Below, piece after piece: positions 1 through 5,625 of a stretch of 53,919 nucleotides of DNA. The DNA comes from an uncultured Bifidobacterium sp. (lineage in GTDB: Bacteria; Actinomycetota; Actinomycetes; Actinomycetales; Bifidobacteriaceae). The position numbers and the translations under genes are program-made. The stretch lies in NCBI RefSeq assembly GCF_945269915.1, contig NZ_CALYOY010000011.1, positions 1-53,919 on the forward strand, written 5' to 3'. A model generated the notes under the pieces. That model had not been told where the DNA came from and did no database searches. It worked only from the letters and a program-made list of their open reading frames with translations. Within the stretch, counting starts at the first letter, position 1, and each line of letters begins with the position of its first letter.

Positions 1-8
1 CAGCTCCA
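1..8 (+). tRNA. Probable 3' end of a tRNA-Ala, cut by the window edge
   Basis: The first seven bases, CAGCTCC, followed by A, read as the 3' acceptor strand plus discriminator base of a tRNA. With a 5' strand GGGGCTG the fifth base (T) would form the G3-U70 pair that identifies tRNA-Ala. A terminator follows directly. The body of the tRNA lies outside the window, so this is an inference from eight bases. No CCA is encoded at the expected place. It could equally be unrelated sequence. Confidence 0.35.
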
Positions 9-18
9 CTCGAACACA

Positions 19-47
19 GCCGCCCGGGTTCGCCCGGACGGCTTTTT
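19..47 (+). terminator. Rho-independent terminator
   Basis: A 10-bp stem with one mismatch (arms at 19-28 and 33-42) closes a TTCG tetraloop and is followed by five T residues at 43-47. The orientation fits the end of a plus-strand transcript entering from the left, possibly the tRNA whose 3' end seems to lie at position 1. Confidence 0.75.
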
Positions 48-301
48 GCTGCTCTCCTTGATTTCATCCTGGGAACCGCAGATTGTATTGGACGGTGCCT
101 GGATGGTTGCCAGGACCCTCCCCGTCGCATAACAACGTGGAACTGCAGATCAGCAGAGCGAAACGACTGTGCCAATAGCCCGGAATACAAATTCAACAAA
201 TCCCTGTTCATACCAGTAGAGCAATACTTCCAATGCCATATCGCACTATTCTCAACACACTACGCACACATATTCATCGGTTGGCACTTATCGAATAGAC
301 C

Positions 302-838
302 TCATTCATCGAACAGGGTGATTGGACATTCTGGAGGGTGGCGAACACTGATGCCGATACTCGCTGTGGCATTGGCTTTCTTGACGAATTCAATGAATTT
401 ATCATCCCACGAATATACTACGGTGGCATTCGCGTATTTTGCCGTAGCCAATATCGCAGAATCGATAGGACGGATACACTGTATTGACGTATTATCGTGG
501 TACCACTCGGCAGCAGGCAAGGTAAGATCCGCAAAATCAAGCGTGGAATCCTCACACCACTGCATCACTTGCTGTTTCATTTCTTTGTATTGTCTTTTAG
601 TCGGGTTACCGTCCGCATGAATAATATGGTCCGACGACAGTTCAATCAGGGCGATGGAAGGAAGCAGAAGTTCAAACTGCCCACTGATGGCATCATCCAA
701 CAATCGTTTTGATCGGTCCAAACACGTCGCGGGGAGATTGTCCATCTTCCCCAGAGCGACGTTCAAGATAACGTTGGTATCAACAATGGCACGCGCGGGG
801 TAACGAAGTCCATCTTCCCTCTCCATATTTAGGGTCAT
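302..838 (-). CDS. PIN-domain protein, candidate VapC-like toxin
   Basis: This 178-residue protein has the PIN-domain layout of a Mg-dependent RNase. VDTN near the N-terminus gives Asp20, IELSS gives Glu66, the RPIDSAIL motif gives Asp126, and a Trp-Asp-Asp near residue 145 supplies the fourth acid. VapC toxins usually cleave tRNA or rRNA; this protein is somewhat longer than the usual 130-150 residues. Its start codon overlaps the stop codon of the upstream gene by four bases (ATGA), so the two are translationally coupled, as in toxin-antitoxin operons. The pair is clearly lower in G+C than the rest of the window, which suggests transfer. The upstream partner is not a recognisable small antitoxin, so toxin function is an inference and a general RNase role is possible. 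Confidence 0.75.
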   Translation of the reverse strand: MTLNMEREDGLRYPARAIVDTNVILNVALGKMDNLPATCLDRSKRLLDDAISGQFELLLPSIALIELSSDHIIHADGNPTKRQYKEMKQQVMQWCEDSTLDFADLTLPAAEWYHDNTSIQCIRPIDSAILATAKYANATVVYSWDDKFIEFVKKANATASIGISVRHPPECPITLFDE

Positions 839-1626
839 TGGCTATCCCCTCTGGTGATCCGTTGCTCTCCGCAGCTTCTCAGCGAGTCGATGATACTGAC
901 AGAGTTCACACCTGACGGCAACTGTATCTTTATGGTATTGACCAAGTCATCAGCCGTGACCGGTGCGCGATGCTTCTTCTGAATCGTTTGAATTCCTTCA
1001 GCATCCATCGAGAGACAATCATCAGCATCAAGCCGAATAAACCCCGTAACCTCTATCAGCCTTCCAGGATTGAGCGTGCTCACGACACCATCAAGATCAC
1101 TCGGGAAAGTGACCTTTACCCTTCTACCGCTCGATTTATCCACCAGCCCGATCGACCTATGATTCCTCTGTAATATGAGCTTGTCGATTTTCCCCTGAAT
1201 GCGACCGAAGGAACGACGTGCAGCCTTCTTGAGAAGACGCTCTAAGTTCTCAAGCAACTGTTGGTCGAGGATGCTAATCTGACCATCGATATTCAGAATC
1301 AGGTCTGATTGAGTTTCATGAACAAGAGCGTTGGAGTTTTCTATGACCCGTTTAAAAGTAATCAACGCAACCTGATTAGGTTCAGCCGATGAGGCCATGC
1401 CGGCAAAGGACCTCATCACTTGTAAAGATCGATTGGCCAAGGAATCATAAACAAGAGGTTCAGCAGTCATATGGACGCTCGCTATACGTGCCTCGGTGAC
1501 TATCCAATCGTCGGCCTCTGCTTGAGACAACAATTGAGAAAATGCCTCAGCCGCCAGATTAAAAGCTCTAGCCGTAACTTTTTCAGGAGGGCAATTGACT
1601 TCAAAACTAAAGTGCGGCACGTCCAT
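835..1626 (-). CDS. Uncharacterised partner of the PIN-domain protein
   Basis: This 263-residue soluble protein lacks a signal peptide or membrane segment. I do not recognise a named family. Residues 1-55 could form an alpha/beta unit, 120-140 is a basic helix, and 141-216 looks like a small beta-barrel (OB-like), with a GRIQGKID start and an RLIEVTGFIRLD strand. It has a strong SD (GGAGGGAGGG) just before its ATG. It is the first gene of a two-gene operon and overlaps the PIN gene by four bases. The position suggests an antitoxin or a regulatory/RNA-binding subunit, but it is three times the size of a usual VapB and shows no obvious ribbon-helix-helix or AbrB domain. Base composition is A+T-rich like its partner. 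Confidence 0.7.
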   Translation of the reverse strand: MDVPHFSFEVNCPPEKVTARAFNLAAEAFSQLLSQAEADDWIVTEARIASVHMTAEPLVYDSLANRSLQVMRSFAGMASSAEPNQVALITFKRVIENSNALVHETQSDLILNIDGQISILDQQLLENLERLLKKAARRSFGRIQGKIDKLILQRNHRSIGLVDKSSGRRVKVTFPSDLDGVVSTLNPGRLIEVTGFIRLDADDCLSMDAEGIQTIQKKHRAPVTADDLVNTIKIQLPSGVNSVSIIDSLRSCGEQRITRGDSQ

Positions 1627-1829
1627 TGTCCCTCCCTCCGATCCTACTGGATAAGCGTATCATTGACCACCCGTATGCCATAGGAATCAATCGTTTGGAA
1701 AATAACCGATCTGGCGCTGTACCGTACACAGCACAAAACGGAACTGATCTAATCGAATATTGACTTTGCAATACCGATCAGCGCCCGAGCACCAAGCAGG
1801 TCGTCATTCAGTGCGCCTTTGCTCGGCAA

Positions 1830-2096
1830 TCAGGAGTATCTCCGCTCAAGCTGTGCATAACGGGATTCGCGGGCGCCCAGGCGGATGGATTCGATATCGG
1901 CTTTGACCTGACGGTACCGGGCGGCCAGATCGTCGCGTCGGGATGGCGACAGGGTGGGGTCATCCAGCTGGTAGAGGATCTGATCCTTGCGCTTCTCCAG
2001 TAATGTGCGGATACGAGTGTGGTATTGGTCGAGCAGCTCAGGCCCGGAATACCCGGGTGAGCGCAGAACTACATCTGCCGGGTCCTGATACTTCAT
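1830..2096 (-). CDS. Small hypothetical protein, 88 residues
   Basis: An open frame starting MKYQDPADVV and ending in LERRYS encodes 88 residues, strongly charged and predicted mostly helical, with no cysteines and no membrane segment. No convincing SD precedes the ATG; a TATATT hexamer lies about 12 bases upstream, so a leaderless transcript is possible. The frame stays open upstream only because it runs antisense to dtd. I do not recognise a family. It may be a small DNA- or ribosome-associated protein, but nothing in the sequence shows that. Confidence 0.5.
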   Translation of the reverse strand: MKYQDPADVVLRSPGYSGPELLDQYHTRIRTLLEKRKDQILYQLDDPTLSPSRRDDLAARYRQVKADIESIRLGARESRYAQLERRYS

Positions 2097-2201
2097 TGGA
2101 GCGAATATACCGGTCCGTGGATTAATACAAGCTTTATCTCGCCATAGGCATAGGCGGCCACGGATCGGCGCGGTCCTGTGGTCGCCTCTAGACTGGCAGA
2201 C

Positions 2202-2696
2202 ATGAGAATCGTCATACAACGTGTTTCCAGGGCACATGTGGATGTGGTCGATGACCGGGGCCAGCCCGATGGGGAATTCGAACCACAGCAGATCCGGCAG
2301 GGGCTGCTGCTCCTGGTGGCGGTCAGTGACCAGGACGGCCCTGAGCAGGTGGCCTATGCGGCCCGGAAAATTGCCAAGATGAGGATTTTCGAGGACGACC
2401 AGGGCAAAATGAACCGTTCGGTGGTCGATTGCCGGGGGCGGATCATGTCGGTCTCCCAGTTCACCCTCTATGCCGACATCCGCCACGGCAACCGTCCCAG
2501 CTTCATCGGAGCCGGCAGGCCCGACCATGCCGAAGAGGTCTGGGAGGACCTCAATCAAGCCCTGTCGGAATACGGCATCGAGGTGATCACCGGCAGCTTC
2601 GGTGCCCACATGAGGTTGGACTTCGTCAACGACGGACCTGTGACCATCCTCCTGGACACGGACGAGCTGATGCAGGCACCCGCCCACCAGGGCTGA
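2202..2696 (+). CDS. dtd: D-aminoacyl-tRNA deacylase
   Basis: Dtd hydrolyses the ester bond of D-aminoacyl-tRNAs (and Gly-tRNA-Ala), recycling tRNA and keeping D-amino acids out of proteins. The start MRIVIQRVSRA matches the family N-terminus, so the ATG at 2202 is preferred over one eight codons upstream. The cross-subunit active site is present as SQFTLYAD, and the second signature is NDGPVTILLDT near the C-terminus. At 164 residues it is slightly longer than usual (about 145-150) because of a short insertion after VDVVDD. It converges with ftsQ, leaving 98 bp between them without a clear terminator. Confidence 0.95.
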   Translation: MRIVIQRVSRAHVDVVDDRGQPDGEFEPQQIRQGLLLLVAVSDQDGPEQVAYAARKIAKMRIFEDDQGKMNRSVVDCRGRIMSVSQFTLYADIRHGNRPSFIGAGRPDHAEEVWEDLNQALSEYGIEVITGSFGAHMRLDFVNDGPVTILLDTDELMQAPAHQG

Positions 2697-2794
2697 CTTT
2701 ACGCAAACGAAGGAGGGCGCAAACCACCGCAGCCGGTCAATGGCTCGATGGACACATTCCTGCTGAGGGCAATATGAAACGGCTGTACCACCGC

Positions 2795-3964
2795 TTACTT
2801 GACGATGGGTCTGAGCGGGGCGGAGACATCGAGCTGGTGTTTGTCACCGATCTTGCTGGGATCATTGATGATCTTGTCAACGACGGCCAGCTTGAGCTTC
2901 AGGTCGGAACCATCTCCCCAGATGATCACACGCTCCCCCCTGTTCAGCTCCGTGGTGATGGAATCCTGGGTGTCGGCGGTCACCTTGGTCACTGAGTGAC
3001 GCATGTCCTCGGGCATGGAGGAGAGGATCAGCAGGGTCTGCTTGACGGTCCGGTCGCTCTTGCCGCGCTCCAGATTGGCCACCTGGATGATGGGGATGTT
3101 CTTGGCCGGCCTGTCGACGGCGTTGAGCACCCGCCCCTTCCGGTCGACGGCGGTCAAAGTGCCCTGGGAATCCTTGAGGATGGCCGTGGGCTCCTGGGCC
3201 CTGAAAGTCACATCCAGGCCATGGGGGAAGTGCTTGTGCACCTGGGCATCGGTCACGCCGGCCATACCGCCGATGTCCTCTTCAATCGACTTGGTCGAAA
3301 CCAGCATGAGGGAACGGTCGCCCTGCTCCCTGACGATGGACTCCACCTTCTTGTTCGCCACCCAGGCGTTGCCGCCGGAGACCTCGATATCCTCGGCTTG
3401 GAGCCGGAAGACCGGTGATATGAAGAGAAGCCAGACCAGGGCCGCGATGAGGGTCAGAACCAGGAAGGTGACACCGGCGCGGATAAGGATGACACGGCGG
3501 CTGGCCGACTTCTTCTCGTTGACCCTGGCCTCGAAGTCGATGACCTTGGGACGGACGAAGACCCCCATGCCCTCCTGGTCCCGGTCGACCCCGATGCGAT
3601 TCGACACGGCCTGGTCGGAGGGCATGGCACGGGCATCAACGAAATCGTCGGCCCGGCTTTCCTGCTCCGAGCGAATCGCGCGCGGGGACGACTGGTCGGC
3701 AGTGGTCGCAGTCTTCCCCTTGGATCTCCGACGGGAGGGAATCAGTTCCTTGGATCGACGGCGCCTCCGGGACTTCCCGGACTCCGTGGGTTCCCCGGAG
3801 TGCCCGACCTGTTTGGAACGCGGACCGCCGCCCTGTCTGGAACCCTCTTGCGACACAGCCCCGTCCGCACCCGACACCGCATCCTTGGAGCGGGAGCGGA
3901 TGGATCGCCCGGACCGTCCATGCCCGTCCGGGTTCCGGGAGCTGACGACTCTGCGGGATGTCAC
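2795..3964 (-). CDS. ftsQ: Cell division protein FtsQ
   Basis: FtsQ is a bitopic divisome protein that links the Z-ring side to the septal synthase FtsW/FtsI. The first 155 residues are a basic, serine/arginine-rich cytoplasmic tail, much longer than in E. coli. A single transmembrane helix follows at about 158-182. The extracytoplasmic POTRA domain begins at FRLQAEDIEVSGGN and is followed by the FtsQ/DivIB domain. It is the last gene of the dcw cluster and its start overlaps the end of murC by four bases, so it is translationally coupled. The identification rests on domain order and position. Confidence 0.93.
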   Translation of the reverse strand: MTSRRVVSSRNPDGHGRSGRSIRSRSKDAVSGADGAVSQEGSRQGGGPRSKQVGHSGEPTESGKSRRRRRSKELIPSRRRSKGKTATTADQSSPRAIRSEQESRADDFVDARAMPSDQAVSNRIGVDRDQEGMGVFVRPKVIDFEARVNEKKSASRRVILIRAGVTFLVLTLIAALVWLLFISPVFRLQAEDIEVSGGNAWVANKKVESIVREQGDRSLMLVSTKSIEEDIGGMAGVTDAQVHKHFPHGLDVTFRAQEPTAILKDSQGTLTAVDRKGRVLNAVDRPAKNIPIIQVANLERGKSDRTVKQTLLILSSMPEDMRHSVTKVTADTQDSITTELNRGERVIIWGDGSDLKLKLAVVDKIINDPSKIGDKHQLDVSAPLRPIVK

Positions 3965-5625
3965 CGTGTCTCCTCTTTCCTACCCTGGCCTGAGAACCTG
4001 ACGGAGAGTTCATCAAGGATGACCTGCCCCATGGTGGTGATGTCGCCTGCACCGACCGTGATGATGACATCACCGGACCGGGCACGGTCGGCCAGGTCCA
4101 GAGCCGCCTGGTGCATGTCCCGGCAGGCATGGAAGGAGGCCTGATGCACATCTCCGGCGGCTGTGGTCTGGCGGGCCTGCAGAATGGTGTCGGGACCAAC
4201 CTCGGGGTAGTCCTCCTGGCGTTCCCGGGCGGGGAAGATACCAGTCACGGTCACATCATCGGCCCGGTTCAGGGCCGAGGCGAACTGGTCGGCGAAGATT
4301 CTGGTCCTGGAGAAGAGATGAGGTTGGAAGAGCACACGGATGGTCCGGTCCGGGTAACGTCTGCGGGCGGCATCCAACAGGGCGGCGATTTCAGTGGGAT
4401 GATGGGCGTAATCGTCCACCAGGGTCACCCCACCGACCTCTCCCCTGACCTCGAACCGCCTGGAGGCCCCGCGGAAACCACCCGCCGCACGGGCCGCGGC
4501 CCGAGGGTCCAGGCCCAGGAGGGTGCAGGCGATGATGGCCGCTGTGGCATTTCGGGCGTTGTGGATGCCGGGTATGGCCAGATCGACTGGCACCTCGACG
4601 CTCCGGTCCGCACTATCCCCGGAATTCCCTGAATCTCTGCCGGTATCGTCCCCGGCCCGGTCAAGGAGGTCGGCCGGAATCTGCAGAGTGCAGTGCTCAC
4701 GGCCCGATCCACTGGCCTCGGACTCGGATACGATCCTGACCAGGCTGGCCCCCTTCAGGGCCTCTCCCAGCTCCGAGCGCGTTTCGGTCGAGTAGACCAC
4801 CACCCTGGCCTTGCAGGTCCCGTTCAGGTCCCGCAGGACCTCCAGGGCACCCTGGTCATCTCCGCAGATGACCAGATACCCCTGGGCATGGCGGACATGG
4901 TCGACGAAGGCCTGGCGGAAGGCGGCCGGGGTTCCGTAATGGTCCAGGTGGTCGGGTTCCACATTGGTCACGATGGCGATGGTGGGGCGGTACTTGCCGA
5001 AGCTCCCGTCCGACTCGTCCGCCTCGGCCACCAGCACGTCACCCTGGCCGACATGGCCCCCGTCGATGGCCCCCCGTGCGGTCTGGATGGAACCCCCGAT
5101 GGCATAGCTGGGGTCGGCGAGCCTGCCGGTTCCGGCATTGGCCAGAATGTGGGCGGTCAAGGCGCTGGTGGTGGTCTTGCCGTGGGCTCCGGCCACGGTG
5201 ACCGAACGCCTGGAGGCCATGAGGAGGGCCAGGATGTCGCTCCGGTGCAGGAGTCGGGCACCCTGGGCTCGGGCCGCCAGGATCTCGGGGTTGTCGGGCT
5301 TGATGGCGCTGGACCAGACCACGGTCCGGGCACCCGCCACGTTCCCGGCGCTCTGCCCCAGGCGGACCGTGATACCCAGCCGCTCCAGGCGGTCGGTCTT
5401 CTCGCTGGCCTGCCTGTCGGAACCGGAGACCTGCACGCCGACCTGGTGGAGCATCTCGGCCAGGACACTCATTCCGGCACCCCCGATACCGATGAAGTGG
5501 GTGGCTCCCAGGTCCTGGGGGTCGGTGATCCCCGTTCCGGCCAGGGCATCCCGGGTCGGGTCCAGGGGCAGGGCAGACGGGTCCGCTTCCCCGGTGGTTG
5601 GGTTCCTACGATCAGTGCTGGGCAA
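3961..5625 (-). CDS. murC: UDP-N-acetylmuramate--L-alanine ligase
   Basis: MurC adds L-Ala to UDP-MurNAc in the cytoplasm, the first step of the peptide stem. The N-terminal Rossmann motif HFIGIGGAGMS, the ATP loop AGAHGKTTTS and the Mur-ligase motif VTNVEPDHLDHYG are intact, and the C-terminal domain carries VDDYAHHPTEI. An open frame reaches an ATG at 5661, but that codon has no SD. A TTG at 5625 follows AGGAG at a proper distance and is chosen here, giving 554 residues. This is longer than usual (about 460-500), with insertions around the Gly/Ser/Asp-rich stretch before VEVPVDLAIPGIHN. Confidence 0.95.
   Translation of the reverse strand: MPSTDRRNPTTGEADPSALPLDPTRDALAGTGITDPQDLGATHFIGIGGAGMSVLAEMLHQVGVQVSGSDRQASEKTDRLERLGITVRLGQSAGNVAGARTVVWSSAIKPDNPEILAARAQGARLLHRSDILALLMASRRSVTVAGAHGKTTTSALTAHILANAGTGRLADPSYAIGGSIQTARGAIDGGHVGQGDVLVAEADESDGSFGKYRPTIAIVTNVEPDHLDHYGTPAAFRQAFVDHVRHAQGYLVICGDDQGALEVLRDLNGTCKARVVVYSTETRSELGEALKGASLVRIVSESEASGSGREHCTLQIPADLLDRAGDDTGRDSGNSGDSADRSVEVPVDLAIPGIHNARNATAAIIACTLLGLDPRAAARAAGGFRGASRRFEVRGEVGGVTLVDDYAHHPTEIAALLDAARRRYPDRTIRVLFQPHLFSRTRIFADQFASALNRADDVTVTGIFPARERQEDYPEVGPDTILQARQTTAAGDVHQASFHACRDMHQAALDLADRARSGDVIITVGAGDITTMGQVILDELSVRFSGQGRKEETR

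What the first reader, a model, noticed from the sequence alone, without database searches (positions are those of the whole stretch)
302..1626. PIN-domain gene coupled to a large, unrecognised partner in an A+T-rich patch
The two genes overlap by four bases in antitoxin-toxin order. The first gene is 263 residues, with a possible OB-like barrel at 141-216, and resembles no standard VapB (RHH, AbrB, MazE). Lower G+C and a likely tRNA-Ala end at the left edge suggest acquired DNA. This could be a toxin-antitoxin or RNase-effector system with a new type of neutralising subunit.
Basis: partly seen in the sequence, partly recalled or inferred. Interest (0 to 1): 0.72.

Follow-up and report, generated by a model that had tools for sequence, protein, structure and literature searches.

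The report
PIN nuclease with unusual partner protein
A predicted RNA-cutting enzyme is made together with an unusually large, so far unnamed partner protein that probably keeps it in check, and this two-gene module seems to travel between bacteria on mobile elements such as integrated phages.

Summary
A 178-residue PIN gene (302-838, minus) follows a 263-residue gene (835-1626, minus) with a 4-base ATGA overlap, in a 47.9% G+C patch (window from 1830 on: 64.1%). The 'tRNA-Ala end' is most likely the 3' end of ssrA (tmRNA), a known phage attachment site. The partner reaches no cut-off in Pfam, NCBIfam, PADLOC or PHROGs. I found 12 loci with a full-length partner in two divergent clades (16-22% identity to the window protein in the far clade; profile-profile E 4.4e-9). 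In 11 of 12 an overlapping PIN gene follows; in the twelfth about ten PIN codons remain. In 189 genomes of the family, PIN profile and full-length partner hit the same 5; in the viral collection both hit the same 5 contigs. One copy lies just inside one end of an about 48-kb att-bounded, probably prophage, element in ssrA. Best reading: a mobile toxin-antitoxin-like module whose partner masks the PIN active site with its C-terminal tail. Main rival: a two-component PIN defence system that is not toxin-antitoxin. Toxicity, neutralisation and structure are untested (one fold model failed, one was never collected).

The parts
835..1626 (-). partner gene, 263 residues, first gene of the pair; probable antitoxin or regulator
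   Evidence: ORF; no match over cut-off in Pfam, none in NCBIfam or PADLOC, only E 0.26 and 0.35 in PHROGs; 11 further full-length homologues
302..838 (-). PIN-domain nuclease gene, 178 residues, second gene of the pair; probable toxin or effector
   Evidence: Pfam PF01850 E 3.6e-7; D20, E66, D126 invariant in 10 of 10 aligned PIN proteins; their profile has one match in solved structures up to E 1, a VapC (7by2, E 7.2e-5)
835..838 (-). ATGA overlap of stop and start codons
   Evidence: 4-base overlap also in L002, L003, L004, L005
979..1206 (-). possible OB-fold region, partner residues 141-216
   Evidence: weak PF01336 matches under the cut-off; with the tail, homologous to a stand-alone 127-residue protein (E 2e-8)
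871..972 (-). conserved C-terminal tail, partner residues 219-252, with Arg250 invariant; proposed PIN-masking element
   Evidence: alignment of 11 partners; role inferred
1630..1639 (-). ribosome-binding-site-like GGAGGGAGGG ahead of the partner start
   Evidence: read from sequence
1..10 (+). probable last bases of ssrA (tmRNA), cut by the contig end
   Evidence: same bases end tmRNA genes of four related genomes; window 1-47 aligns to the att copy and terminator ahead of dtd in G121, 76.6% identity, E 0.008
19..47 (+). terminator-like hairpin and T run
   Evidence: read from sequence; no terminator scan was run

Best explanation
A mobile two-gene toxin-antitoxin-like module. The PIN protein is a metal-dependent RNase of the VapC type (profile match and conserved acidic residues are shown; RNA as substrate is inferred). 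The first gene makes a large neutralising partner with an N-terminal domain, a possible OB-fold domain and a C-terminal tail ending near an invariant arginine. Translated first and coupled by the overlap, it binds the PIN protein and its tail blocks the active site (inferred). The module is cargo of integrated elements, probably prophages among them, and helps to keep them or protects their host against other phages (inferred).
For: Partner-first order and overlap in 11 of 12 full-length loci over two clades. PIN and full-length partner co-occur exactly: same 5 of 189 genomes; same 5 viral contigs. In these searches no PIN of this kind was seen without the partner, while a partner survives with its PIN cut to about ten codons in G874, the direction expected if the PIN is harmful alone. 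PIN catalytic acids kept; the one solved structure matched by sequence is a VapC. Between the nearest non-identical relatives the partner changes faster than the PIN, dN/dS 0.141 against 0.042. Mobile-element setting.
Against: No toxicity or neutralisation data. The partner is much larger than usual VapB (recalled) and shows no DNA-binding domain of the known antitoxin kinds. One partner remnant (G049) and two C-terminal-half homologues (G066, G057) have no PIN beside them. The dN/dS contrast rests on one pair; in the few other computable pairs the ranges overlap (partner 0.215; PIN 0.205 and 0.137) near saturation. The single-sequence fold model failed (pLDDT 31.7).
Confidence: 0.6

Rival explanations
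1. A two-component phage-defence RNase that is not toxin-antitoxin: the partner is the sensor or guide (the OB-like domain binding nucleic acid, or a phage protein), both are needed, and the PIN is inactive until infection.
For: Mobile-element setting; a large multi-domain partner is more like a sensor than a minimal antitoxin; published precedent DS-5, a PIN plus a second protein whose deletion abolished defence without unleashing toxicity (passages of PMC13092281).
Against: Partner retained with the PIN nearly gone in G874 is not expected if both are needed, though one case may be decay. PADLOC: only one weak hit, PDC-M07B E 0.0046, for the window PIN, and none at E up to 1 for six proteins of three relatives.
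Confidence: 0.25
2. An RNA-processing or element-regulation pair (for example controlling the element's own transcripts or excision) rather than a toxin or defence module.
For: OB-like region and PIN nuclease could act on one RNA; the copy in G121 lies about 225 bases from the att copy.
Against: The pair occurs in unlike places: ssrA-dtd gap, end of an att-bounded element, beside ParA and replication-type genes, among glycosyltransferase-type genes, beside phage amidase genes (several names read by eye), so no fixed element function follows it.
Confidence: 0.1
3. Chance neighbours or an annotation artefact.
For: Only one copy in this genus.
Against: 11 of 12 loci coupled; purifying selection on both genes between L002 and L003.
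Confidence: 0.02

Closest known systems
VapBC type II toxin-antitoxin systems
   Same: PIN nuclease as second gene, inhibitor-like gene first with overlapping ends, mobile and patchy; PIN profile matches a solved VapC
   Different: Partner of 263-281 residues with a possible OB region and no RHH, AbrB, Phd or HTH match
PIN-associated antitoxin families of Makarova 2009 (COG2442/DUF433, COG2880, COG1753, truncated MerR)
   Same: Found by PIN neighbourhood, predicted antitoxins (passages of PMC2701414)
   Different: The passages seen describe DNA-binding-type domains (three-helical bundle, AbrB-like, RHH, MerR-like); OB-fold does not occur in that text
DS-5 of DefensePredictor
   Same: Two-gene system with a PIN nuclease and a second protein (passages of PMC13092281)
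   Different: DS-5's second protein has DUF5830 and an AcrIF4-like domain; no match of that name appeared for seven partners or part-partners scanned in Pfam at E up to 10
tmRNA-integrated prophages of Bifidobacterium breve
   Same: Integration at the 3' end of ssrA with a similar attachment core (passages of PMC6109161)
   Different: The word toxin does not occur in that paper's main text; the PIN pair is not described in the passages seen

Membership tests
VapBC | PIN-domain toxin gene | tested here: met
   PF01850 E 3.6e-7 over cut-off; VapC 7by2 E 7.2e-5 for the profile
VapBC | conserved acidic PIN active site | tested here: met
   three positions invariant in 10 of 10; the fourth, D145, is kept in the 4 aligned close relatives and differs in the other clade
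VapBC | antitoxin gene directly upstream and coupled | tested here: met
   11 of 12 loci
VapBC | VapB with a known DNA-binding domain (RHH, AbrB, Phd, HTH) | tested here: not met
   no such match for the partners scanned in Pfam or NCBIfam
VapBC | PIN toxic alone and neutralised by the partner | not testable with these tools
   needs bench work
VapBC | autoregulation through an operator | not tested
   upstream sequences of four loci were printed but no operator analysis was done
DS-5-like PIN defence | partner with DUF5830 | tested here: inconclusive
   no such match, but I did not check that this family is in the Pfam copy
DS-5-like PIN defence | both genes needed for phage protection | not testable with these tools
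   needs bench work
prophage cargo | inside an att-bounded element with phage genes | tested here: inconclusive
   G121 copy: between ssrA and a copy of its last 20 bases, with an integrase, SSB and ParB family gene, but virion genes were not looked for. Window copy: beside the ssrA end at a contig edge, no second copy of CAGCTCCAC in 1-3000

The most novel reading that the evidence does not exclude
A new class of phage-carried PIN immunity module of actinobacteria: the OB-like domain of the partner senses nucleic acid or protein of a rival phage, and this frees the PIN RNase whose active site the arginine tail masks. The free-standing OB-plus-tail proteins in two genomes would then be orphan neutralisers that let an element escape the module.
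Probability: 0.22. Interest if true: 0.72.

Novelty: new variant of a known kind. Interest (0 to 1): 0.52.

Why it matters
PIN nucleases are one of the most abundant toxin groups, and their known antitoxins are mostly small DNA-binding proteins (in part recalled, in part passages). A conserved large partner with a possible OB domain, linked to a PIN gene across two distant actinobacterial groups and carried by mobile elements, would add a new antitoxin or sensor family and offers a compact system for testing how prophages protect themselves or their hosts.

Tried and rejected
Single-sequence searches with the window partner in genome contigs, viral contigs, plasmids and phages and with the window PIN in genome contigs, plasmids and phages found nothing, as did the profiles A1, A2 and A6 in viral contigs, the 127-residue protein and P0004 against plasmids and phages and the two L081 proteins against plasmids. 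396 genomes of the order gave no new carrier with the partner or the PIN profile; only the window's own genome was hit, so the other known carriers were apparently not in that sample.

Rows dropped: of 19 genomes listed at E up to 0.1, I kept 5 full-length, 1 remnant (G049) and 2 short homologues (G066, G057); 11 with E 0.007 to 0.098 were dropped without individual reading. In one search two hits of about 33 residues (E 0.0072, 0.0099) were looked at in translation and dropped. In one search G1074 (partial, E 6.5e-4) and G1216 (27 residues, E 6.5e-5) and G1117 (partial, E 2.4e-4) were not accepted; the G1117 frame was not resolved. DARPin matches of the profile were taken as chance.

Rejected: tRNA-Ala at the left edge (ssrA fits better). 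Looking for a complete tmRNA in the own genome gave four sub-threshold hits, all tRNAs by ARAGORN, and no pattern match, which fits ssrA lying in an assembly gap but does not prove it; the same family search also missed its cut-off in 5 of 14 control genomes. Rfam found nothing in 1-4000. One search was a script that failed on a file name and was repeated.

Full report
What is there. The two ORFs are as described: partner 835-1626 and PIN 302-838, both on the minus strand, with ATGA shared. A GGAGGGAGGG stretch precedes the partner start. The pair has 47.9% G+C against 64.1% from 1830 on, and no other stretch of the same length starting after 1700 falls below 55.8%. Window position 1 is the start of a contig.

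Boundaries. In the same-genus genomes with the closest dtd, G014 and G015, DNA matching the window begins at about 1830 (an 88-residue ORF) and runs through dtd; nothing in the 14-kb stretches fetched matches 1-1829. The partner is absent from 26 of 27 same-genus genomes. The left edge CAGCTCCAC plus a hairpin matches the end of ssrA: ssrA lies next to dtd in G013 and, in the other orientation, in G026, and 5 to 7 kb from it in G004 and G009; none was found in the stretches of G014 and G015. Window 1-47 aligns with the att copy and terminator ahead of dtd in G121. In G004 a YafQ-RelB toxin-antitoxin pair sits about 0.2 kb from ssrA, so this gap looks like a landing site for such modules; that is an inference from few genomes.

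Homologues. In 189 genomes of the family, full-length partners were found in 5 genomes including this one, a remnant in G049, and C-terminal-half homologues in G066 and G057. The PIN profile hit 5 of 189 genomes, the same five. G115 and G093 copies differ at one of 3753 positions and are not independent. A phylum sample of 376 genomes gave one distant homologue, G874. From it came G957 (3 of 199 genomes listed, two accepted, one of them G874 itself) and five viral contigs. A last search of 198 genomes of that family added none that I accept. The two clades are related by profile comparison over 211 columns, E 4.4e-9. A PIN profile of the second clade, searched in the viral contigs, returned the same five contigs, as did the partner profile again. 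That PIN scan used patterns taken from partner-linked PINs, so it favours them.

Coupling. Of 12 full-length partner loci (window, L002, L003, L004, L005, L078, L079, L081, L083, L084, L085, L086), 11 are followed at once by an overlapping PIN ORF: 4 bases in five loci, 11 in L081 and 14 in the five viral contigs if the longest ORF start is used. In L078 only a stub reading PDRPESVYLD follows. The three partial homologues have no PIN.

Protein features. Ten PIN proteins share D20, E66 and D126. Eleven partners share W41, S50, P57, L128, G141, G145, L161, G195, L228 and R250. The 127-residue protein of G057 matches the OB-like region and tail, E 2e-8. OB-fold support is weak in every search. 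One second-clade PIN has a sub-threshold NCBIfam match to another PIN family, 20 bits against a cut-off of 170. That VapB-type antitoxins often place a C-terminal arginine into the PIN active site is recalled, not taken from a call; the passages seen in PMC4803016 describe VapB5 acting by another route.

Setting. In G121 ssrA is at 819286-819678 and a copy of its last 20 bases at about 868005; between them lie an integrase gene, SSB, a ParB-family gene, a YafQ toxin gene and, about 225 bases from the right copy, the pair. I listed genes only for roughly the right half of this about 48-kb element, the integrase is not at an end of it, and virion genes were not looked for, so 'prophage' is an inference. 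Prophages at this site are known in B. breve (passages of PMC6109161). In G115 the pair follows ParA and replication-type genes, in G082 it lies among glycosyltransferase-type genes (names read by eye). In the viral contigs L085 and L086 amidase genes are nearby, Amidase_2 E 1.5e-20 and 1.4e-5, the second just under the cut-off. The recombinase that I suspected in L083 had no Pfam match.

Selection. Between L002 and L003 dN/dS is 0.141 for the partner and 0.042 for the PIN. Most other pairs are saturated at silent sites; those with a value give 0.215 for the partner and 0.205 and 0.137 for the PIN, which does not show the contrast.

Known work. Makarova 2009 lists several PIN partners of DNA-binding type in the passages seen. 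DefensePredictor describes DS-5, a PIN plus partner system judged likely not to be toxin-antitoxin. Searches of the paper library for PIN with OB fold and antitoxin, Bifidobacterium PIN toxin-antitoxin, PDC-M07, VapC with novel antitoxin, OB fold with VapC, prophage VapBC defence, Bifidobacterium prophage VapC, and Streptomyces PIN antitoxin family listed nothing that I recognised as describing this pair; I saw listings and, for a few papers, passages, and the library misses most subscription journals.

Conclusion. The gene pair is a real, conserved, mobile unit with an uncatalogued partner family. That it is a toxin-antitoxin system is likely but unproven; a defence system with a sensor partner remains open.

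Noticed in passing
L013:1492-1875 and L007:1492-1875 (minus): 127-residue proteins homologous to the partner's OB-like region and tail, without a PIN gene, beside a gene that looks like a CHAP-domain cell-wall enzyme (read by eye); possible orphan antitoxins.
   Followed up: partly
L063:12950-13484 (minus): A YafQ-RelB toxin-antitoxin pair about 0.2 kb from ssrA in a same-genus genome.
   Followed up: partly
L052:16089-16674 (minus): A YafQ-type toxin gene and a probable antitoxin gene (the latter read by eye) in the same element as the PIN pair of G121, about 0.8 kb from it.
   Followed up: partly
window:1830-2096 (minus): 88-residue ORF of no Pfam family, conserved next to dtd in G014 and G015.
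   Followed up: partly
L006:1240-1881: Remnant of the partner (residues 136-251) with an altered N-terminal part and no PIN gene, probably a decayed copy.
   Followed up: partly
L075:10804-10826 and L052:18928-18950: A 23-base perfect repeat near each attachment site in G121, possibly integrase arm sites.
   Followed up: no
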